Part shown: piece by piece, positions 88 through 19,062 of the stretch
Numbering within the stretch: the first letter of the stretch is position 1
Layout: each line of letters begins with the position of its first letter
Origin: Candidatus Sumerlaeota bacterium
Lineage (GTDB): Bacteria; Sumerlaeota; Sumerlaeia; JAFGJS01
Assembly (NCBI GenBank): GCA_016928995.1
Contig: JAFGJS010000016.1
Location: 1 to 23,049, forward strand
Reading direction: 5' to 3'
Length of the DNA: 23,049 bases
Translations under genes and position numbers: made by a program
The notes under the pieces: model-generated
The model's database searches: none
Seen by the model: the letters and a program-made list of their open reading frames with translations, nothing else
Told to the model about the DNA's origin: nothing

Positions 88-194
88 GGCCCAGCCTCGC
101 CGGGCGAAGGGGTTGAATAGCGCACTGATTTTGAGAGTGGAAGATTGCATCTTGGGATATTGATCCCGATATGCATATAAGGAGGCGCGGGGGG

Positions 195-1715
195 ATGAAG
201 CTGCATGTGCAGACCGATCATCGGCAAAAAACAACCTCTTCTTTAAGCATCTATTTCGCCTTTCTTTTGTGGTTGGGGTTGGTTTGGGGGGTGATGTTGC
301 GGGTGGCGGGGGGGCAGGAGCCGAGGCCGGGCGATCCGGGGGCGCCGCCGGAGCTGCCGGCGAATGCGCCGCATGTCGTGCAGCCGCCCGTGGACCGGCC
401 GCCGTGGGGCGTGGAGGTCGAGGCGGGCGAGGCGCAAGGCGAGGCCGAAGCCGAAGCCGCGGCCGAAGACGAGGGTGAGGCGCTGTTCGGTCAGGCGCCC
501 GGGGAGGAGGAGCTTGAGGCGGTCGAGGCGGCGGCGGCGCGGCCGGCGGAGCAGCCGGAGGACAACGGCGCGAGCCGCGCCGTGCTGGACGATTATACGG
601 CGCTGGCGCGCACGATGATCGGCGAGGAGCGCGAGGAGACGGAGATCCGCAGCTATCATTGCCGGCATATCGACAGCAATTCGCTGAGCCGGGTGCTGGC
701 GGAGTTCATCTCGCCGAGCGGCAACGTGGCGGACAATCCGCAGGCGAACATCGTGGTGGTGTCGGACTTGCGCGAGAACATGGCGGATTTGCTGCGGATC
801 GCGGAGATGGTGGATCAGCGCGCGCCGCAGATTTACGTGAAGGCGCAGATCGTGGAGATTCTGCTGGACAAGGATTTTGAGAAGGAGCTGAACCTCACGT
901 TGAGTTTGGCGGAGGAGCATTCGTTTTTGAAGTCGCTGATCGTGAACCTGGATACGCCGGGTTCGGAGCCGAGCACGGATCAGGGCAGCGCGGTGTCGCT
1001 GCAGCCGTGGGTGACGTTGCGCGGCGACGGGACGGTGGACAATCTGACGTCGTTTTTCCGCTACCTGGAGACGCGCAACAAGGCGAAGATTTTGTCGGCG
1101 CCGAACTTGATTTTGCGCCAGGGCCAGGAGGGGAGCATCATCACGGGCGAGGAGGTTCCGATCCAGGAGCAGACGGTGGTTTCGGGTTCGATCAGCAGTT
1201 CGACGGAGTTCAAGAGCGTGGGGGTGAAGCTGGTGGTGACTCCGCTGATGATCGCGGAGGACCGGATCGTGCTGTCGATCGAGCCGGAGGTTTCGACGAT
1301 CACGAGCTACACGGAGGCGACGGAGACGACGGCGGCGAATCCGATCATTTCGGTGCGGAAGGCTTCGACGGAGTTGGAGGCGAAGGACGGCGAGGTGATC
1401 ACGATCGGGGGTTTGCTGCGCGACGAGGAGCGTTTGATCGAGCGCCGGGTGCCGATTCTGGCGTCGCTGCCGGTGCTGGGTCATTTTTTCCGGAGCGTGC
1501 GGAAGCAGACGGAGCGGACGCATCTGATCATCATGCTGCAGGCGGAGATTTTGGAGGAGGGTGTGGCGCACGGCGAGCGGATCGTGCGTCCGTCGGATCA
1601 GCCGGCGGCGTTCCGCGAGGAGTTCGAGCGGTTGGAGCAGGAGCCGGACCTGCAGTATCCGGAGCCTGATTTGCGGCGCGAGCTGCGCGAGTGGGGGGAT
1701 GATTCGATCCGATGA
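195..1715 (+). CDS. Short secretin (GspD/PilQ-type outer-membrane channel protein)
   Basis: Secretins form multimeric gated channels in the outer membrane for type II/III secretion or type IV pili. The ATG at 195 is preferred over the in-frame ATG at 171 because TAAGGAGG lies at 178-185, 9 nt upstream of it; this gives 506 residues. A hydrophobic segment at about residues 16-40 acts as signal or anchor. A long Ala/Glu-rich linker follows to about residue 130. Next comes an N-domain (VVVSDLRENMADLLRIAEMV, then a QIYVKAQIVEILL strand). The beta-barrel secretin domain covers about residues 290-450 and ends with the family signature VPILASLPVLGHFFR near residue 419. The protein is shorter than typical GspD or PilQ (about 600-700 residues): only one clear N-domain is visible, with no recognisable AMIN or extra KH-like domains. 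The adaptor gene follows directly. The system it serves is not identifiable. Confidence 0.9.
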   Translation: MKLHVQTDHRQKTTSSLSIYFAFLLWLGLVWGVMLRVAGGQEPRPGDPGAPPELPANAPHVVQPPVDRPPWGVEVEAGEAQGEAEAEAAAEDEGEALFGQAPGEEELEAVEAAAARPAEQPEDNGASRAVLDDYTALARTMIGEEREETEIRSYHCRHIDSNSLSRVLAEFISPSGNVADNPQANIVVVSDLRENMADLLRIAEMVDQRAPQIYVKAQIVEILLDKDFEKELNLTLSLAEEHSFLKSLIVNLDTPGSEPSTDQGSAVSLQPWVTLRGDGTVDNLTSFFRYLETRNKAKILSAPNLILRQGQEGSIITGEEVPIQEQTVVSGSISSSTEFKSVGVKLVVTPLMIAEDRIVLSIEPEVSTITSYTEATETTAANPIISVRKASTELEAKDGEVITIGGLLRDEERLIERRVPILASLPVLGHFFRSVRKQTERTHLIIMLQAEILEEGVAHGERIVRPSDQPAAFREEFERLEQEPDLQYPEPDLRRELREWGDDSIR

Positions 1716-1731
1716 TCGGGGGCATGTGCGG

Positions 1732-3276
1732 ATGATGTCGAGGGTCGATGGCGTTGCGGGCCGCGGGCGGCGGAGCTGGCTGTTTTGGCTGGCTGCGGCG
1801 GCGCTGGTCTGCGCGGTGGCGGCGAGCTGGGGCTGGATGGGCGAGTGGCTGGGCGCGCATTTGGCGGGCGATTCGTCCGCCCCGGAGCTGGACCGTCTGT
1901 TCACCGTCCGCAAAGGCGGATTTAAGATTGAGATCGAACGCGAGGGTGAATTTTGCGAAGTCGACCGGTACAATTTGATTTTCCGGTCGCGGCAACAGCA
2001 AGGGGATCTTCGAATCACCAAGGTGGTCGAGGACAAGACGCCCGTGAAGAAGGGCGATGTGGTGATTGAAATCTCCCGCGACTCGCATGACAAAAGACTC
2101 GATCAGTTGAAGCAGGACCTGGAGACCGCGCAAAAAGATCTGGCGCTTTCGCGCGAGGAGCTGGAGATCAAAAAGAGCGGCAACATGTCCTCGATCAAAA
2201 ACAGCGCCCACGACCTGGAAAATGCCAGGGAGTCGATGGCTCAATATCGGGACATGGAATCCCGGCAAAGGAAAAAAACACTCCGCAACGCGATTGATGA
2301 GGCCGTTGAGGATTACGACGCCGCCGTGGCGAAGCTCAAAGAGGCGCGCGACAATAAAAACAGCGTGCAGGCCGGCGGGATGGAGAGTGAGGAACTGGAG
2401 CAACTTGAGCGTCAGGTGAACGAGGCGCAGCAGCAGTTGGAGCAAAGGCGAACGAGCTTGGAAAACGCGCAATATCAGCTGCGCATTTTCCGGCAGTATC
2501 AACATCCGCAAAAGATGGATTCGTTGCAGGAGGCCGTTGATCGCGCCAAGCTGGTGCTGGATCGAACGATCGTGCAGGCCAAGGGCAGCGTGGTGCAGGA
2601 GGAAAGCATGATGCGGAACTTGCAGAATAGCATCGCGCAGACTGAGCAAAAAATAAAGGAAATCAGCGAAGACCTGGATAATCTCACGCTTCGCGCGCCG
2701 GCGGACGGCATCGTCAGCCTGGGCGCTCCTGAGAGCATTAATTACGGCGGTTATATTCCCGTGCCGCAGGTCGGGATCAATGTTTATTCCGGGCAGATCC
2801 TCGCCACGATACCAGTGCTTTCGAAGATGATCGTCAAGACGCGGATCCCTGAAACGCATCGTTCGAAGATCAAGGAAGGTCAGCTCGCCTTGATCTATGT
2901 GCCCGCGGTGGATAATCTTGAAATGAGCGGCTCGATTGAAATGGTTTCACAGATGACGGAGAAGCTGAATCCATGGGAAGGCGGCGATGAAGGCGTCAAG
3001 TACTACCCCATTGAAATCGGCGTTGAAAATGTGGACCCTCGCATCACGCCCGGCTTGACGGCAAAAGTGGAAATTATCATCGATGAAGTGCAGGATGCGC
3101 TTTATCTGCCGTTTGAATGCGTCTATTTGGATGGCGATCAAGCCTGGTGCGACGTTTGGATAAATAAACAGATCGTGCCGCGTAAAATCGAAGCCGGACG
3201 CGCCTCCATGCATTACGTGGAAATCCTCTCCGGCCTGGAGGAGAGGGAGCAAGTTCTGCTAAATCCAGGGAAATGA
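1732..3276 (+). CDS. HlyD/MacA-like membrane fusion (periplasmic adaptor) protein
   Basis: Adaptors of this family are anchored in the inner membrane and bridge an inner-membrane pump to an outer-membrane channel. From the chosen ATG the product has 514 residues: an N-terminal membrane helix (about 15-33), a lipoyl-like half (ITKVVEDKTPVKKGDVVIEIS), a long charged coiled-coil hairpin (about residues 115-310), the second lipoyl half (LTLRAPADGIVSLG), and beta-barrel and membrane-proximal domains (IVKTRIPETHRSKIKEGQLA, then TPGLTAKVEIII). The frame is open further upstream and starts at 1699 or 1735 are possible; 1732 has GGGGG 9 nt upstream. A start at 1699 would overlap the secretin gene by 17 nt. 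Tight linkage to the secretin points to one operon. The pump partner is not in the window. Base composition changes soon after the membrane helix. Confidence 0.85.
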   Translation: MMSRVDGVAGRGRRSWLFWLAAAALVCAVAASWGWMGEWLGAHLAGDSSAPELDRLFTVRKGGFKIEIEREGEFCEVDRYNLIFRSRQQQGDLRITKVVEDKTPVKKGDVVIEISRDSHDKRLDQLKQDLETAQKDLALSREELEIKKSGNMSSIKNSAHDLENARESMAQYRDMESRQRKKTLRNAIDEAVEDYDAAVAKLKEARDNKNSVQAGGMESEELEQLERQVNEAQQQLEQRRTSLENAQYQLRIFRQYQHPQKMDSLQEAVDRAKLVLDRTIVQAKGSVVQEESMMRNLQNSIAQTEQKIKEISEDLDNLTLRAPADGIVSLGAPESINYGGYIPVPQVGINVYSGQILATIPVLSKMIVKTRIPETHRSKIKEGQLALIYVPAVDNLEMSGSIEMVSQMTEKLNPWEGGDEGVKYYPIEIGVENVDPRITPGLTAKVEIIIDEVQDALYLPFECVYLDGDQAWCDVWINKQIVPRKIEAGRASMHYVEILSGLEEREQVLLNPGK

Positions 3277-4961: not shown

Positions 4962-7631
4962 TCACTTCGAGGTGAATTCTTCCGCTGCGCTGATTTTATC
5001 CCAGTGAAACTTGTATAGGCGGTTGCATTGTTTGAGGTCGTCCGCGGTCAGGTTTTCCTTGTATGGCTCGCGGAGATGCAAGGGGCGAGTGATGGTGATC
5101 AGCTCCATCACGGGCGTGTCCAGCCATTCATCCACGCCGAGGCGCTTGTTGATCGGATTGTGCTCCTCGTTGGGAATGTATAGGTAGTAGTCCACGCCGC
5201 GCTTCACGGTCTTGCCGTCGCTTTCATGCACCTCCATATCGCGCAGCCGCCGCCAGCGCTCCTCGACGGGCAAATCCCACAGCGGCCAGATTTCCGGTTC
5301 GTCCATGTGGAACAGCGTGATCGAGGGGTGATACGCGAGATGGCGGTTTTCATGCGTGAGGATCACGGCGCCTTCCTCCGGCGTCTTGCCGGCGCAAACG
5401 GAGTTGACCAAGTTCCATATTTCCACGTCGTGATCGTAGCGCAGCCGCCGCATGTCGTCGGCGCTCATGCCCAGATGCCGCAAGGGATACATGTCCATCC
5501 AGCGCACGACTTCGCCTTCGAGTTCCGTGGCGCCGGTGGCCTTGAAGCCCAGCAGGGAAAAGGGGAGCGCGGGAAACAGCGCAACGAGCAGCAACGCCGC
5601 CGCCATGCCGTACGCTGGCAGCCGGCCGCGCGTGAGCCAGAGGCAAAACACCGGCGCAAGGCTCAACGCAGGCAGCATCGGCAGGATCTGATACTGGTAA
5701 TAATCGCCCAGCGCGTAATGAAATCCGAGCATGGACGCCACGACCAGGGCGATCACGGCGCCGAATTTGAGTTCGGCGTAAACCGGTCTGCGTTTGAAGA
5801 AGGCGACGGATAAAAGTCCGAGCCAGATCAACAATCCGGGAACGCCGAAGCCGATCAGCGCCGGGCTGAATTTGGTGGCGTGGTTGCGCGAGTCGAACCA
5901 GAAGGATTTTGAGAGTTGTAGTTTGACCAGCAGATTTTCCGCCTTGGATTGTTCTCTCCACTTCAGCCAGATCGCCCAATCGCTTGCGTCGCCGTCAATC
6001 TGCGCGCGATAGGAGTTGCGCCAGACTTGCCAGGCGTATCCGCCGACGCCGTCGCCGTTGAGCGTCCATTCGTAATCGGCGGATTGCATCACGTCTTCGT
6101 TGTAATTGATTCCGCCGAACACGCCGTGAAAAAAGGCGTACACCGGATTGCCGGTGAGCGCCCAGTTGCGGATGTGCCATGTGCCCGCCGTGAGGCCGGC
6201 GATGATCAGCAGCGTCCAGAACCACTTGGCGGTGAGCAGGCACCCGAGCGGCGGGCACGTTCCATTCACCACGAACGGCAGCGGCGCCTGCCGCCGTACG
6301 CGCGAGTCGCCTTCAAATAGATTGTCGATGCTCTCCAGTTCGCCATAGCGCGGCCGAAGATGCACGGTCAGCACGGTGAGCGCCCAGGGCAGCCAGAGGA
6401 TGCCCATCAGGTAATTGATGTGCATGGCGAAGGCGGGGATGAAGGTGAGCAGAACGAGATAGCCGCGCAGCGCGGTTTCGAGATATTTCCACGCGAGGTA
6501 GAGGAAGACGGCGGTGAAGAGGATCGCCACGGCGTAATCCGAGGCGTACATCGCGTAGGCGATGGCGTAGACCGGCGTGCGAAAAAGCAGCGCCAGCACG
6601 GCGCCGGCCAGGCGGCTGCGCGTGACTTCCGTCGCGGTGTAGTAGATCGTGATCGTGGAGAGCATCGCGCACCACGGCGGCGCGGTCTGCGCGAATACGT
6701 CATGCCATCCGCCCCACAACGCGGCCGTGGTTGAGCCGACGAGTGGATAAAGATGCGGATAATTCGCGCCAAGGCCATAGCCGACATGCGCGACGGCTTT
6801 GAACGGAAAGCCGTGCTGCAGGTATGTCATGCGGCCATAGCCCATGTATAGAATCAGGCTGTCCCAATAGGTTTCGGCGAAAAAGATCGCGTGAAACGCG
6901 GCCAGCAGCAAGAGCAAGCCGGAGGCGCTGAGCAATGCGATCCATAAGCCGAATTGCCAGCGGTTCAAGGGCATAAGCGATTCGCGGAGCGCCTTGCGTG
7001 CAAGATTGACCTGGCCCGACGAGATTGCGCGTGGGTCTTGATGCGTCTCGCCGTCCGATTTGCGCCGCATCATCGCCAGCCACGACATGCGCCAGAACAC
7101 AATGATGGCCAGGGCGAACATGATGATGATTGGCCAGCGGTACAGCAGGCGAAACATGGCGAGCAGTTCGATCAGCACGGACATCGCGCCAAGGCCGGCG
7201 ACGTAGTTGATCGGCAGCCGCATCAAGCGCGGCACGTAGATCTCGCAGCAGTTGACCGCGAGGTTGCCGACGAAGGTGTAGAGCGCGATCATGGCGCAGG
7301 CGAACAAGAGCGGCAGCCATGCGATCCCGCCCAATTGCCAATGCCACGGTTCGAGCAAGCCGGAATACCATGGCAGCATGGCCTCGCGCAGAGCCGCTGT
7401 GAGCATGCGCGGATTGGCGAACAGCCCGAGCGTGGAATCCGCGTATTGCTCCAGCGGAATGAACTTCGTCATGAGATGCAGGCAGCAGAACAGCGCCCAC
7501 AACACCGCCGCCATCGCGACAATGAGCCGAAGCCATTCGCCGCGATCCATCGGCTCGCGAGGACGCTCTTCATCCGGCGCTTTCAGCTCCGGCGAAGGCT
7601 CATCCTCCACATTGAAAGATAGATCATCCAA
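4962..7631 (-). CDS. Large GT39-like (GT-C fold) membrane glycosyltransferase
   Basis: This 889-residue protein has an acidic cytoplasmic N-terminus (about 30 residues), then more than ten hydrophobic segments and a soluble C-terminal domain of about 200 residues. The loop with AETYWDSLILYMGYGRMTYL holds an acidic residue at about 257 in the position of the GT-C catalytic loop, followed by HGFPFKAVAHVGYGLGANYPHLYPLVG, typical of PMT/ArnT-like enzymes that use polyprenyl-phosphate sugars. It probably transfers a sugar on the periplasmic face; donor and acceptor are unknown. The frame opens at a TTG (7631) without a clear ribosome binding site; an ATG at residue 28 is an alternative. It lies 52 nt behind the ankyrin gene on the same strand and is probably cotranscribed with it. 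A generic multi-pass membrane protein of the GT-C clan is the fallback call. Confidence 0.75.
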   Translation of the reverse strand: MDDLSFNVEDEPSPELKAPDEERPREPMDRGEWLRLIVAMAAVLWALFCCLHLMTKFIPLEQYADSTLGLFANPRMLTAALREAMLPWYSGLLEPWHWQLGGIAWLPLLFACAMIALYTFVGNLAVNCCEIYVPRLMRLPINYVAGLGAMSVLIELLAMFRLLYRWPIIIMFALAIIVFWRMSWLAMMRRKSDGETHQDPRAISSGQVNLARKALRESLMPLNRWQFGLWIALLSASGLLLLLAAFHAIFFAETYWDSLILYMGYGRMTYLQHGFPFKAVAHVGYGLGANYPHLYPLVGSTTAALWGGWHDVFAQTAPPWCAMLSTITIYYTATEVTRSRLAGAVLALLFRTPVYAIAYAMYASDYAVAILFTAVFLYLAWKYLETALRGYLVLLTFIPAFAMHINYLMGILWLPWALTVLTVHLRPRYGELESIDNLFEGDSRVRRQAPLPFVVNGTCPPLGCLLTAKWFWTLLIIAGLTAGTWHIRNWALTGNPVYAFFHGVFGGINYNEDVMQSADYEWTLNGDGVGGYAWQVWRNSYRAQIDGDASDWAIWLKWREQSKAENLLVKLQLSKSFWFDSRNHATKFSPALIGFGVPGLLIWLGLLSVAFFKRRPVYAELKFGAVIALVVASMLGFHYALGDYYQYQILPMLPALSLAPVFCLWLTRGRLPAYGMAAALLLVALFPALPFSLLGFKATGATELEGEVVRWMDMYPLRHLGMSADDMRRLRYDHDVEIWNLVNSVCAGKTPEEGAVILTHENRHLAYHPSITLFHMDEPEIWPLWDLPVEERWRRLRDMEVHESDGKTVKRGVDYYLYIPNEEHNPINKRLGVDEWLDTPVMELITITRPLHLREPYKENLTADDLKQCNRLYKFHWDKISAAEEFTSK

Positions 7632-8695: not shown

Positions 8696-10498
8696 TTACG
8701 GCGCGCTGCGGCGCGAGAGGTTTCGGGGCGTGCTGCGCAGCTTTTCCGTCGCGCGGCAGCGTTCGATCAGCGCCTGATTCTCCGGCGTGTCGCGGATGAA
8801 AATCACCCAGCCGCGTTTGCTCTGGAATGAATTGAGCAGATCGATCATGACCCAATCCGGATTGCATGCTAATGCTTCCACCAATTTCGCGCCGGCGCCG
8901 CAAACGATGAAATTGATCTGCCATTTGTTGAGCAATTGCAGATAGCGCGGCGGATCGGTCAACTCGCCGGTGAATTCGCTTTTTTCCTGCGCGTTCTCGA
9001 TGATCACGGCTTCGAAGGCGAAGTCGCCGCCGAAGATGTCGAAACGGTCGTCGGTGAAGGTCTTGTGTTTCTCCGGACTCAAGCGCCAGATCAGGTATCC
9101 CGCGTCGTTGATCGGCGCGTACATCCTGCCATGAAAATCTTTTTCCAAAATGAAATCACAAATCGCCTTGGGATAGGCGCCGGTTTCCATCGCCTTGCCC
9201 TGCAGAAATCGCGCGTTGCGCTGATGGAAGGTCATGAGATCAGGCGGGTTGATGTCAGACCGGTAGTCCTGTCCGAAGAAGTAATAGGCGGCGAGCGCGA
9301 TAGCCGCTGCGCCCAGCGACGCTCGCGCAATCCGGCGTGTGCGCGCCGCTGCTGTTGAAACTGTCTCTTTCGAATTTTCCTGCGCCCATCCCATTAACGC
9401 GCCGTTCCATAGCTCCGCGATCAGCGGCGCGGCCGTCAGCGCGAAAAGCGGCAGATGCCGAACGTGGCTGAGCGATTGCTGTAGAAAAAAAACAACGATT
9501 AATAGTTCGCCGGGATGGGATTGTGGAATGCGCCGCGCGCAAGACGAGTACGGCATCCACTCGCGCAACGCAAACACCGCCGCGCTGAATACGGCCAAAA
9601 GACCGACGGCCAACAATGCGATCATCGCCAGGTAGGAAGGCACATGATGGAAATCGGGCGGCAGCAACTCCGGAATCATCGCCACGAGCTGCTTGTCGCT
9701 CATCACGCGGTTGAACATGCCATAGAGTTTGTAGCCATATGGATTGAGCAAGGTGACGGCCGTGCTGGCCGCGAGGATTCCCAGCAGCATGGCGCCACGA
9801 ACAAGGCGCGGACGCCACGCCTCACGATCTTCCCGCCGCATACGCCAATGCCAGGCGCCCGCCATGAATTCGCCGGACATGAAGCCGCCGATCACGATCA
9901 GCCCCAGAATGAATCCGCCGTGCATGTTGGTCCAGAGGATCGTCAGCAACGGCAAGGTCCAGAGCCAGCGCAGCCGCAGCTTGCCGAAGACGTGCGCGTT
10001 GAGCAGAAAGAGAAACACGACGAGGAAAAAATACGTCACGACCGGCGGACGCGCATAGAGCGTCCAGCGCGAGGCGTTCACCGCGATGATCGCGATCAGC
10101 GCGGCCAGCGCCGCATTGCGCGTGCGCCAGAGCAGCAAGGCGTAGAGCAGGGCGAACGTGGCGGCGACCAGCAGCGCCTTGGCCGCAATCACGATCCATG
10201 CACCGCTGTCCGGCCCTTGCCCTTCGCCGGCCTGGTATATCCACCATGCGATGATTTGCGTCAGCCACTCGTGGTTGTGCCACTCGTAGTCCGCCGAGGT
10301 GAACGAGAAAACATCATGCTCGGGCAGCCGATAGCCATGCTCGACGATGTAGCGGCCCGCCTTGAGCTGCCACCAGAAATCCTGATCCGTACGCAATGGC
10401 GTCATGGCATGCGACAATCCGACCAGCGCAACCAGCGCGCCCAGCAAGATCGCCAGCGCATGACGCTTCCATATGATGGAGTTTTGAGTTTCCGGCAT
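8696..10498 (-). CDS. GT-C-like polytopic membrane protein, probable glycosyltransferase
   Basis: From the ATG at 10496-10498 the product has 600 residues; in-frame starts at 10519 (ATG) and 10534 (TTG) are possible, and none has a clear ribosome binding site. After a first membrane helix (about residues 13-33) comes the motif DQDFWWQLKAGRYIVEHG (from residue 38) and then HDVFSFT..EWHNHEWL. This acidic and aromatic first-loop pattern is seen in uncharacterised GT-C-like membrane proteins of many environmental bacteria. About ten more hydrophobic segments follow, then a soluble C-terminal region of about 180 residues with PINDAGYLIWRLSPEKHKTFTDDRFD. It is probably a lipid-linked-sugar transferase; donor and target are unknown. 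It starts 45 nt after the stop of the M48 gene, in line with one operon. Confidence 0.7.
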   Translation of the reverse strand: MPETQNSIIWKRHALAILLGALVALVGLSHAMTPLRTDQDFWWQLKAGRYIVEHGYRLPEHDVFSFTSADYEWHNHEWLTQIIAWWIYQAGEGQGPDSGAWIVIAAKALLVAATFALLYALLLWRTRNAALAALIAIIAVNASRWTLYARPPVVTYFFLVVFLFLLNAHVFGKLRLRWLWTLPLLTILWTNMHGGFILGLIVIGGFMSGEFMAGAWHWRMRREDREAWRPRLVRGAMLLGILAASTAVTLLNPYGYKLYGMFNRVMSDKQLVAMIPELLPPDFHHVPSYLAMIALLAVGLLAVFSAAVFALREWMPYSSCARRIPQSHPGELLIVVFFLQQSLSHVRHLPLFALTAAPLIAELWNGALMGWAQENSKETVSTAAARTRRIARASLGAAAIALAAYYFFGQDYRSDINPPDLMTFHQRNARFLQGKAMETGAYPKAICDFILEKDFHGRMYAPINDAGYLIWRLSPEKHKTFTDDRFDIFGGDFAFEAVIIENAQEKSEFTGELTDPPRYLQLLNKWQINFIVCGAGAKLVEALACNPDWVMIDLLNSFQSKRGWVIFIRDTPENQALIERCRATEKLRSTPRNLSRRSAP

Positions 10499-10543
10499 GG
10501 CCCAACTATGTCGCGCCATGCACGGTCTTTGCAAGACTGATTC

Positions 10544-15938: not shown

Positions 15939-16901
15939 ATGGCGGAAAAAGTGATCATTCTGGGGAGCGGTCCGGCCGGCCTCACAGCGGCGCTCTATGC
16001 CGCGCGCGCCGATCTGGAGCCGCTGGTGCTGGAAGGCGGACAGCCCGGCGGGCAATTGACCACGACGACGGAAGTGGAAAATTATCCCGGTTTTGTCGAG
16101 GGCATCGACGGCACGAAGCTCGTGGACGCCATGCGCGAACAGGCCAAGCGTTTCGGCGCGCGGTTTGAATACGGCCGCGTGGTGGAATGCGATTTGTCGC
16201 AGCGGCCGCTGACGATCGGCGTGGCCGATCCGTTCGATACGAGCGACGAGGCCAAGGCGCAAAAGCAGCTGGAGACGCAAACGCTGATCATCGGCACGGG
16301 CGCCTCGGCGCGTTATCTCGGGCTGGCAAGCGAGCGGCGCCTATTGAACAAGGGCGTTTCGGCCTGCGCAGTGTGCGATGGGGCGCTGCCGATTTTCCGC
16401 AACGCCACGCTGGCCGTGGTGGGCGGCGGTGATTCGGCCTGCGAAGAGGCGCTCTACCTCACCAAGTTCGCCAGCAAGGTTTACATGGTGCATCGCCGGG
16501 ATCAACTGCGCGCCTCGACGATCATGGCCTCGCGCGTCGAGAAGCACGAGAAGATCGAGGTGCTCTGGAACAGCGTGATCGAGGACGTGCTGGGCGATGA
16601 AAAGGTCGAGGGCATGCGCGTCAAGGACGTGAAGACCGGCGCAACGCGCGATGTGGAGCTCGGCGGTTTCTTCCTCGCCATCGGCCATGATCCGAACACC
16701 AAGTTTCTCAAAGGGCAGCTCAAGCTGGACGCCCAGGGCTTCATCGAGGTGGAACATCCCAGCGCGCGCACGAGCGCGGCGGGAGTGTTCGCCTGCGGCG
16801 ACGTGATGGACCCGCATTACAAGCAGGCGATCACCGCCGCCGGCAGCGGCTGCCGCGCCGCCCTCGACGCCGAAGCATATCTGGAATCGCTGGCGGATTA
16901 A
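15939..16901 (+). CDS. trxB: Thioredoxin reductase (NADPH)
   Basis: TrxB passes electrons from NADPH through FAD to thioredoxin. The 320-residue product, the usual family length, shows the FAD-binding GSGPAGLTAA (from residue 9), GGQPGGQL, the redox-active CAVCDGA (Cys143 and Cys146), the second nucleotide-binding motif VVGGGDSACEEALYL, an HRRDQLRAS segment typical of NADPH binding, and the C-terminal FAD motif GVFACGDVMDPHYKQAITAAGSGC. AAAGGA ends about 10 nt before the ATG. An insert of about 10 residues (FDTSDEAKAQKQLE) shifts the active-site cysteines from the E. coli 135/138 positions. It is the first gene of a two-gene unit with the ABC exporter. Confidence 0.97.
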   Translation: MAEKVIILGSGPAGLTAALYAARADLEPLVLEGGQPGGQLTTTTEVENYPGFVEGIDGTKLVDAMREQAKRFGARFEYGRVVECDLSQRPLTIGVADPFDTSDEAKAQKQLETQTLIIGTGASARYLGLASERRLLNKGVSACAVCDGALPIFRNATLAVVGGGDSACEEALYLTKFASKVYMVHRRDQLRASTIMASRVEKHEKIEVLWNSVIEDVLGDEKVEGMRVKDVKTGATRDVELGGFFLAIGHDPNTKFLKGQLKLDAQGFIEVEHPSARTSAAGVFACGDVMDPHYKQAITAAGSGCRAALDAEAYLESLAD

Positions 16902-16914
16902 TTCCGCCCCCCTG

Positions 16915-19062
16915 ATGGTTCGACCCATGATCGTTTACCACCTCACGCATCAAGACAAGCTGCGCCGGTACTTTCAGGAAGGCGTCAAGCGTTCCGAAAC
17001 CCGCATCTATGTCTTTCCCAACTTCGAGCACATCGAGTTGTGCATCGACGCGATGGCGATGGAGGACAACGGGCAAAGCTCCATCGAACAATATCGCGTG
17101 CTGGTGTTGAATGTGGACGAGGATCAGATGCTGCGCGCGCCAATTCCCCGCGCCAGCCTTCCCGTCAATCTGAAGCCGGAAACCGTCGAACAGCTGCAGG
17201 CGGAATCGTGCTACATCGAAACAGACCTGGCTAAGGAGCGCATCATCGGTGTGAAGACCGTGTACGGCGACAATGAGACGGCCAAGCATCGCGTCACTCA
17301 GGCCAGGACGTCGAACATTCCGCGTTTCCTGAAATTCGTGAAGCCTTACTGGCGCTTTGTGCTGGGCGCCACGCTGATGGGTTTCGCCAAGTTCCTGATT
17401 CCGGTCGCTTTTCCCTGGATGCTTCGCACCGTGCTGGACGATGTGATTCTGCGCGACGGGCTGGACGCCGCAGAACGCAACGCCACGATCCTGCATCTGA
17501 CGCTGATGATGATCGGGCTGAACCTGCTCTGGATGGGCGCGACTTTCTGCCGCAGCGTGTTCACTGCGACGGCGGGCAACAGCATGATCCGCGATTTGCG
17601 CCTGGCGCTGTATAATCACGTCCAGCGCCTGTCGCATCATTTCTTCACATCGCGCCAGAGCGGCGCCATCGTCACACGGCTGGTGAACGACATCTCCCAG
17701 GCGCAAAATTTTGTCGGCCATGCCTTGACCAATCTTTGGATGGACCTGGTGCTGATGGTCGTCCTGCTCGCCATTCTGATTCCTCTGAACTGGAAACTGA
17801 CCCTTGTCGCGCTTTGCCTGATGCCGTTGTTTCTCTTTTCCATCCGCCATATCGGCCGCCGCATCCGCCTCTCCAGCCAGGAGGTTCAGCAGCGCATGGA
17901 AGTGCTCGCCGGCGGCCTGCAGGAGAAGGTCGCCGGCGTCGTGATCGTCAAGGGCTTCACTCGCGAACGCGAGGAGTCTGACGTTTTCCGCACGCAGGCC
18001 AACAAGCTTTACAGCAAGGTGCTGCGCTCCGTGCGCTACATGGCCTGCAATGAAATGATCGTCGGCTTTGTCGTGCTGACGTCGCCCGTGCTGGTCGTCT
18101 GGCAGGGTTCGCATCTGATCATCCAGGGCGAACTCACCGTCGGCCAACTGACTCAATTCCTGCTGTACCTCGGCATGTTTTACGGGCCGTTGCAGCGCAT
18201 GTCCGACCTGGGCGCCGTGCTGGCCTCTTCGCTGGCCTCGATCGACCGCGTGTTCGAGTACTTCGACACGGCGCCGCAGGTGACGGACAAGCCCGAAGCC
18301 CTGCCGCTCAAGACGGCTCGCGGTCATCTCGTTTTCGACGACGTCACCTTCGGCTACGATCAGGATAAGCCGGTGCTGAAAGACATTTCGCTGGAGATTC
18401 AACCGGGCGAGACCGTCGCTTTTGTCGGTCCCAGCGGATCGGGCAAATCGACGCTGGCGAATCTTGCGCCGCGATTCTACGATCCGGACAAAGGGCGCAT
18501 CCTGCTCGACGGGCACGACCTGCGCGACGTTCAGCTCGATTCGCTGCGGCAGAACATCGGCATCGTGAATCAGGAGACGATCCTCTTCAGCGGGACGGTG
18601 CGCGAGAATCTGCTGCTGGCCAAGCCGGACGCTGAACCGGACGAATTAATGGCCGCGCTCAAAGCGGCCAACGCCTTGCAGTTCGTGGATGAACTGCCTG
18701 AAGGTTTATGGACGGAAATCGGCGAGCGCGGCCTGAAACTCTCCGGCGGGCAAAAGCAGCGCCTCGCCATCGCGCGCGCGTTCTTGAAGAATCCGCGCAT
18801 CCTGATCCTCGACGAAGCCACCTCGGCGCTCGATTCGCGCTCCGAGCGCCTGATCCAGGAAGCCCTGCGCAACCTGCTGCAGGACCGCACGGCCATCGTG
18901 ATCGCGCACCGCCTTTCGACGATCCTCAATGCCGACAAGATCGCCGCGCTCGATCGCGGCCGCATCATCGAATGCGGCAGCCACCACGTCTTGCTCGAAC
19001 AAGGCGGCCTTTACGCCCAGCTTTTCGAAGAGCAATTCGGCGCCCTGAGCGCGGAGGCATAG
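16915..19062 (+). CDS. MsbA/LmrA-type ABC exporter half-transporter with an unusual N-terminal soluble domain
   Basis: The 715-residue protein has a soluble N-terminal domain (residues 1-117), a six-helix ABC exporter membrane domain (about 135-430) and a nucleotide-binding domain (about 460-700). The latter shows Walker A GPSGSGKST (505-513), Q-loop NQETILFSG, signature LSGGQ (609-613), Walker B ILILDEA (Asp633, Glu634) and the switch His665; all are intact, so it should hydrolyse ATP as a homodimer. The substrate is unknown; lipid, peptide or drug export are all possible. The N-terminal domain begins VYHLTHQDKLRRYFQEGVK and contains RIYVFPN, VLVLNVDED and CYIETDLAKERIIGV, a pattern that resembles the KptA/ADP-ribosyltransferase fold. 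It starts 13 nt after trxB without a clear ribosome binding site; the ATG at 16927 is an alternative. The gene ends before a strong terminator. Confidence 0.93.
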   Translation: MVRPMIVYHLTHQDKLRRYFQEGVKRSETRIYVFPNFEHIELCIDAMAMEDNGQSSIEQYRVLVLNVDEDQMLRAPIPRASLPVNLKPETVEQLQAESCYIETDLAKERIIGVKTVYGDNETAKHRVTQARTSNIPRFLKFVKPYWRFVLGATLMGFAKFLIPVAFPWMLRTVLDDVILRDGLDAAERNATILHLTLMMIGLNLLWMGATFCRSVFTATAGNSMIRDLRLALYNHVQRLSHHFFTSRQSGAIVTRLVNDISQAQNFVGHALTNLWMDLVLMVVLLAILIPLNWKLTLVALCLMPLFLFSIRHIGRRIRLSSQEVQQRMEVLAGGLQEKVAGVVIVKGFTREREESDVFRTQANKLYSKVLRSVRYMACNEMIVGFVVLTSPVLVVWQGSHLIIQGELTVGQLTQFLLYLGMFYGPLQRMSDLGAVLASSLASIDRVFEYFDTAPQVTDKPEALPLKTARGHLVFDDVTFGYDQDKPVLKDISLEIQPGETVAFVGPSGSGKSTLANLAPRFYDPDKGRILLDGHDLRDVQLDSLRQNIGIVNQETILFSGTVRENLLLAKPDAEPDELMAALKAANALQFVDELPEGLWTEIGERGLKLSGGQKQRLAIARAFLKNPRILILDEATSALDSRSERLIQEALRNLLQDRTAIVIAHRLSTILNADKIAALDRGRIIECGSHHVLLEQGGLYAQLFEEQFGALSAEA

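What the first reader, a model, noticed from the sequence alone, without database searches (positions are those of the whole stretch)
16915..17265. ABC exporter fused to an N-terminal domain resembling the KptA/ADP-ribosyltransferase fold
MsbA-type exporters normally begin within about 20 residues of their first helix. Here 117 soluble residues come first. They read like the core of a KptA or DarT-like ART domain: VYHLTH near the start (His9), an amphipathic helix ending in EGVK, RIYVFPN (Tyr32), a VLVLNVDED strand, and CYIETDLAKERIIGV (Glu102), similar to the closing strand and PPE-I motif of that fold. If correct, this would join NAD or nucleotide-phosphate chemistry or sensing to an exporter. 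It could also be a degenerate, non-catalytic ligand sensor.
Basis: partly seen in the sequence, partly recalled or inferred. Interest (0 to 1): 0.7.

Follow-up and report, generated by a model that had tools for sequence, protein, structure and literature searches.

The report
Exporter with an ADP-ribosyltransferase-fold front domain
A bacterial membrane export pump carries at its front end an extra domain with the fold of NAD-using ADP-ribosyltransferase enzymes, conserved in two bacterial phyla but apparently without the catalytic residues, so it probably regulates or feeds the pump rather than acting as an enzyme.

Summary
ORF 16915-19062 (+) is an MsbA-type ABC exporter preceded by about 114 soluble residues plus a linker. 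The fold interpretation also holds. No sequence library recognises the extension, but four homologues (40-46% identity) were found in genomes of a different phylum, all fused to the same exporter (60-62% identity over the whole protein). With these five sequences AlphaFold2 gives a confident model (pLDDT 88, pTM 0.82); its best solved-structure matches are ADP-ribosyltransferase (ART) folds: Tpt1/KptA, DarT, pertussis toxin S1, CC0527. The catalytic reading does not hold. His9 varies (H/C/Y/H/L). The second catalytic His of Tpt1 is Phe. Glu102 is invariant but lies after the strand that the ART Glu precedes. The Tpt1 RNA lobe is absent. Equivalents of Tpt1 Thr103, Gly115 and Arg121 are retained, with further family-specific invariants. 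Best reading: a non-catalytic, cytosolic ART-fold sensor or docking domain on a homodimeric exporter; ligand and cargo unknown. The extended exporters form one clade (support 100/100). The family is rare: five of roughly 1,000 genomes searched. I know of no reported ART-fold/ABC-exporter fusion, and the open-access literature searched showed none.

The parts
16915..19062 (+). ABC exporter gene with N-terminal ART-fold domain, 715 aa (711 aa if it starts at 16927)
16927..17268 (+). ART-fold domain, ORF aa 5-118
   Evidence: A1 alignment of 5 homologues; AF2 pLDDT 87.8, pTM 0.82; fold searches
16939..16941 (+). His9: first ART motif position, not conserved (H/C/Y/H/L)
17002..17004 (+). Arg30 (residue 26 in A1): invariant; aligns with Tpt1 Arg121
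   Evidence: PMC6333775
17008..17010 (+). Tyr32: invariant, in strand R-x-Y-V/F-F
17218..17220 (+). Glu102: invariant, in SFYLETDLxPxRI, just after the strand (not at the ART catalytic Glu position)
17269..17322 (+). Linker, variable in length and sequence (6-24% identity to homologues)
17374..18192 (+). ABC transmembrane domain (PF00664)
18376..18825 (+). ABC nucleotide-binding domain (PF00005) with intact Walker A (GPSGSGKST), signature (LSGGQ), Walker B (LILDEATSALD); H-loop AHRLST follows it

Best explanation
The gene encodes a homodimeric type-I (MsbA-like) ABC exporter. Each half carries, on the cytosolic side before the first membrane helix, a compact ADP-ribosyltransferase-fold domain that is probably not a catalyst. 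It most likely works as a regulatory or ligand-sensing module: it binds a small anionic ligand (a nucleotide, NAD-like or phosphate-bearing molecule) or a partner, and through the flexible linker gates the transporter. Shown here: the conserved two-domain architecture, the ART fold (predicted model), loss of the catalytic residues by alignment, and intact ATPase motifs. Inferred: cytosolic location (family knowledge of MsbA-type topology), homodimer (no second half-exporter next door), ligand binding and gating.
For: Four homologues with the same fusion in another phylum. Confident AF2 model from five natural sequences, ART-fold matches throughout the top hits in the PDB and viral libraries. 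VIA: PltC Z 8.8 (4.0 A, 107 aligned), pertussis S1 Z 8.5 (3.8 A, 111 aligned), Tpt1 8tg4 Z 7.9 (3.2 A, 84 aligned, 18% identity), DarT Z 7.2 (4.3 A, 120 aligned). His9 variable; no conserved Glu before the strand; Phe in place of the VHLS His. Equivalents of Tpt1 Thr103, Gly115 and Arg121, which contact the adenosine ribose, adenine and phosphates (PMC6333775), are invariant. N-domain 39-53% identical among the five while the linker is 6-56%. Walker A, signature, Walker B and H-loop intact in the window protein. No DarT or KptA hit in the own genome.
Against: No ligand, cargo or regulation has been shown. Only 3 of about 14 Tpt1 ADP-ribose contacts are retained (His101, Arg139 and Arg140 are not), so NAD binding in the Tpt1 manner is uncertain. 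Family-specific invariants (Glu102, Asp104, Arg109, Pro-Ile-Pro) are unexplained and could form a different active site.
Confidence: 0.55

Rival explanations
1. The domain is a cargo-recruiting or docking domain, working like the C39-like domain of HlyB: it holds the substrate or a partner protein near the translocation path and binds no nucleotide.
For: It occupies the same cytosolic N-terminal place as the C39 and C39-like domains of type I secretion and peptidase exporters (family knowledge). Invariant residues such as Pro-Ile-Pro, E-T-D, R109 and K114 are not explained by an ART site.
Against: No conserved neighbouring substrate gene in any of the five loci. Invariant residues include the Tpt1 Thr103/Gly115/Arg121 equivalents.
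Confidence: 0.2
2. The domain is an active enzyme that uses NAD or a related nucleotide with non-classical residues (for example Glu102, Asp104 and Arg30), coupling NAD chemistry to export.
For: ART fold; Arg30, Tyr32 and Glu102 invariant in all five; Tpt1-type ARTs lack the classical Glu, so absence of Glu alone does not prove inactivity.
Against: First motif His not conserved (H/C/Y/H/L); Phe at the second motif position; the Tpt1 RNA lobe (Arg18, His19, Arg68) is missing; no known triad intact.
Confidence: 0.15
3. The domain is thioredoxin-like, as suggested by the trxB gene next door and the low-confidence single-sequence model.
For: Single-sequence AF2 model (pLDDT 46) matched thioredoxins best, Z 4.2.
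Against: With five sequences the model becomes confident and matches ART folds, not thioredoxins; no CxxC; trxB is not next to the gene in the other four genomes.
Confidence: 0.02

Closest known systems
Tpt1/KptA NAD lobe (RNA 2'-phosphotransferase, PF01885)
   Same: Same fold and size, same order of elements; top Foldseek hits (8tfi E 6e-4, 1wfx 7e-4); motifs YxxT, G, RxYV, and SFYLETDLxPxRI against the VWL-x-x-x-VPPxYI ending recalled for Tpt1 (NKVWLCD in L073)
   Different: No N-terminal winged-helix RNA lobe; HGT and VHLS histidines and Arg139/140 equivalents absent; fused to an ABC exporter
DarT (PF14487) DNA ADP-ribosyltransferase
   Same: ART fold (VIA Z 7.2); N-terminal YHxTHxxxLxxxxxxG motif resembles DarT (profile score 23.2 against a shuffled maximum of 19.5)
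   Different: About 80 residues shorter; no conserved catalytic Glu; no partner gene seen; not matched by the Pfam model
CC0527 (PDB 2o0q; DUF952 family, as I recall)
   Same: Small stand-alone ART-like fold of about 114 residues (Foldseek E 1.6e-3, VIA Z 7.3-7.5)
   Different: 8% identity; stand-alone; function unknown
ABC exporters with accessory cytosolic N-terminal domains (C39 peptidase, HlyB C39-like domain)
   Same: Soluble cytosolic domain before the first transmembrane helix of a type-I exporter
   Different: Those domains are papain-like; here the fold is ART
MsbA-type exporters (TIGR02203/TIGR02204)
   Same: Transmembrane and nucleotide-binding domains (E 3e-144)
   Different: Below the NCBIfam equivalog cut-off (481 against 602 bits); carries the extra domain; substrate unknown

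Membership tests
ADP-ribosyltransferase (ART) fold superfamily | ART fold of the NAD lobe | tested here: met
   AF2 pLDDT 87.8; PDB and viral top hits are ART fold; predicted, not solved
Catalytic ADP-ribosyltransferases | Catalytic residues (H-Y-E, R-S-E or H-H-h type) conserved | tested here: not met
   First position H/C/Y/H/L; no conserved Glu before the strand; Phe at the second His position; by alignment
KptA/Tpt1 (PF01885) | Pfam model match | tested here: not met
   No match in any of 5 members at E up to 10
KptA/Tpt1 (PF01885) | N-terminal winged-helix RNA lobe with Arg-His-Arg of the essential tetrad | tested here: not met
   The domain begins at the NAD-lobe strand; nothing precedes it
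KptA/Tpt1 (PF01885) | Fourth tetrad Arg (Arg121 of C. thermocellum Tpt1) | tested here: met
   Arg30 invariant and aligned with it, by alignment only
DarT (PF14487) | Pfam model match and catalytic Glu | tested here: not met
Type-I (MsbA-like) ABC exporter | ABC_membrane plus ABC_tran with intact Walker A/B, signature and H-loop | tested here: met
MsbA lipid A exporter (TIGR02203) | Score over the equivalog cut-off | tested here: not met
   481.5 bits against 602
NAD/ADP-ribose-binding proteins | Binds the ligand | not testable with these tools
   Needs a binding assay

The most novel reading that the evidence does not exclude
An ABC exporter family whose transport is gated by an NAD- or ADP-ribose-type ligand through a built-in ART-fold pseudo-enzyme domain: a direct link between NAD/nucleotide status and export that has not been described.
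Probability: 0.3. Interest if true: 0.8.

Novelty: new variant of a known kind. Interest (0 to 1): 0.6.

Why it matters
ART-fold domains are known as toxins, DNA/RNA modifiers and RNA-repair enzymes. Here one is a conserved built-in part of a membrane exporter in two bacterial phyla, apparently without catalytic residues. It would show that the ART fold has been reused as a transporter accessory domain, and it offers a small, testable system for asking whether NAD or nucleotide levels control an ABC exporter. No Pfam, NCBIfam, PHROGs or PADLOC model recognises the domain.

Tried and rejected
Single-sequence searches (Pfam, NCBIfam, PADLOC, PHROGs, PDB sequences, viral contigs, phages, plasmids, GTDB contig scan) found no relative. 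Three weak hits in relatives (E 0.002-0.006) were chance stretches inside carbamoyl-phosphate synthase-like and oxidoreductase genes. A single-sequence AF2 model suggested thioredoxin and was discarded once the five-sequence model was confident. Profile comparison with KptA was not significant, and with DarT only at the first motif. A later start codon (GTG at 17251 or 17260) was considered and rejected because the extension is conserved as protein. Literature searches for ART/ABC-exporter fusions found none, but only open-access papers were searched.

Full report
Observation. ORF 16915-19062 (+) encodes 715 aa. Pfam places the ABC transmembrane region at aa 154-426 and the ATPase at aa 488-637; NCBIfam gives MsbA-type models as best hits, below the MsbA equivalog cut-off. 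Walker A, signature, Walker B and H-loop are intact. About 114 soluble residues plus a linker precede the first membrane helix. A gene that reads as thioredoxin reductase, trxB (15939-16901; named from its sequence, no family search run), ends 13 bases upstream.

Is the extension real? By sequence alone it looked like an orphan: no hit in Pfam, PADLOC, phages, plasmids, viral contigs or a GTDB contig scan, and none of note in NCBIfam, PHROGs or PDB sequences. No relative of it was found in 98 other related and distant genomes; three weak hits were chance. The nearest unextended exporters lack it. A search of 82 genomes of another phylum then gave four clear homologues, E 3e-26 to 2e-30, 40-46% identity. 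All four are fused to the same exporter, with 60-62% identity over the whole protein and no shared neighbouring genes. Between window and homologues the N-domain is 39-46% identical, the linker 6-24%, the TMD 62-64% and the NBD 68-70%. This is a folded, selected domain. Three homologues are best started at M-I-V/F-Y, so the window gene probably starts at 16927.

Origin and spread. In a tree of 56 exporter cores the five extended proteins form one clade with support 100/100; the closest unextended exporter, L007, is from the window's own class. One gain of the domain followed by transfer between phyla is the simplest reading; it is inference. The family is rare: a profile search of 386 genomes around the window's organism found only the window, and a profile search of the other phylum found only the same four of 82. 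Two further phyla searched with the single sequence gave nothing. These absences are only as good as the searches: the four homologues were missed by the GTDB contig scan, if they are held there at all.

Fold. The single-sequence AF2 model was poor (pLDDT 46) and matched thioredoxins weakly. With the five natural sequences (alignment A1) the model is confident: pLDDT 87.8, pTM 0.82, five models between 84.9 and 87.8. Foldseek against the PDB puts Tpt1/KptA first (8tfi E 6e-4, 1wfx 7e-4), then CC0527, DarT, pertussis toxin and other ART toxins. VIA-align gives PltC Z 8.8, pertussis S1 8.5, Tpt1 7.9 (3.2 A over 84 residues, 18% identity), DarT 7.2 and IcmQ 7.0. Among viral models the best is a phage DarT-like protein, E 3e-6, TM 0.57/0.71. 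The E-values and Z-scores are moderate, but the top ranks are essentially one superfamily, and the VIA match to A. pernix Tpt1 begins with residue 1 of the model on residue 92 of the chain, which places the domain's Y-x-L-T on the Y-H-G-T of Tpt1.

Active site. In C. thermocellum Tpt1, His101 and Thr103 (HGT) bind the adenosine 2'-OH, Gly115 and neighbours bind adenine, and Arg121, Arg139 and Arg140 cage the phosphates; Arg18, His19 and Arg68 of the RNA lobe complete the site (PMC6333775). A Tpt1 sequence aligned with the 182-aa chain 6e3a and an HH alignment of A1 to KptA map these to the family. Thr103, Gly115 and Arg121 equivalents are invariant (ORF Thr11, Gly23, Arg30). His101 is H/C/Y/H/L. 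The VHLS His is Phe34. No conserved Arg stands for Arg139/140, and the RNA lobe is missing. The HH score to KptA is itself not significant, so this mapping rests on the fold match plus motif spacing. Glu102 is invariant but follows strand 95-97 of the model, whereas the DarT catalytic Glu (A-E-x-L; its role is from my own knowledge) precedes the equivalent strand; in this family that preceding position is an invariant Ser or, one residue earlier, variable. Therefore classical ADP-ribosyl transfer and 2'-phosphotransfer are unlikely. Other invariants (Asp70, Pro-Ile-Pro 76-78, Ser98, Tyr100, Glu102-Thr-Asp104, Arg109, Lys114) are family-specific and unexplained.

Mechanism. MsbA-type exporters have a cytosolic N-terminus (family knowledge), so two copies of the domain would sit beside the NBDs and coupling helices of the dimer, tethered by a variable linker. 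I favour a regulatory or ligand-sensing role (0.55), then cargo docking (0.2), then unorthodox catalysis (0.15). Ligand and cargo are unknown; no genomic neighbour points to them.

Novelty. Exporters with accessory N-terminal domains are known (C39, C39-like). ART-fold domains are known. The combination, in a conserved family without catalytic residues, was not found in the open-access literature searched, and no domain library searched models it. I class it as a new variant of a known kind.

Noticed in passing
L040, L038 (own genome); L008, L010, L018, L028 (same class): Other MsbA-type exporters in this class carry a different N-terminal extension of about 150-200 aa: a possible bacterial PH-like domain (bPH_3 E 0.019, below cut-off) and in some a zinc ribbon (E 5e-4, below cut-off) before the membrane domain.
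   Followed up: partly
window 171-3276 (+): A secretin gene (PF00263) overlaps the mechanical ORF of an HlyD-like adaptor (PF13437); the adaptor's true start is probably downstream of the overlap.
   Followed up: no
window 4962-7631 (-) and 8696-10534 (-): Two large, apparently multi-spanning membrane proteins (889 and 612 aa) without any Pfam match at E 0.001.
   Followed up: no
G000, the window's genome: The genome has no DarT or KptA match, although several class members have DarT.
   Followed up: no
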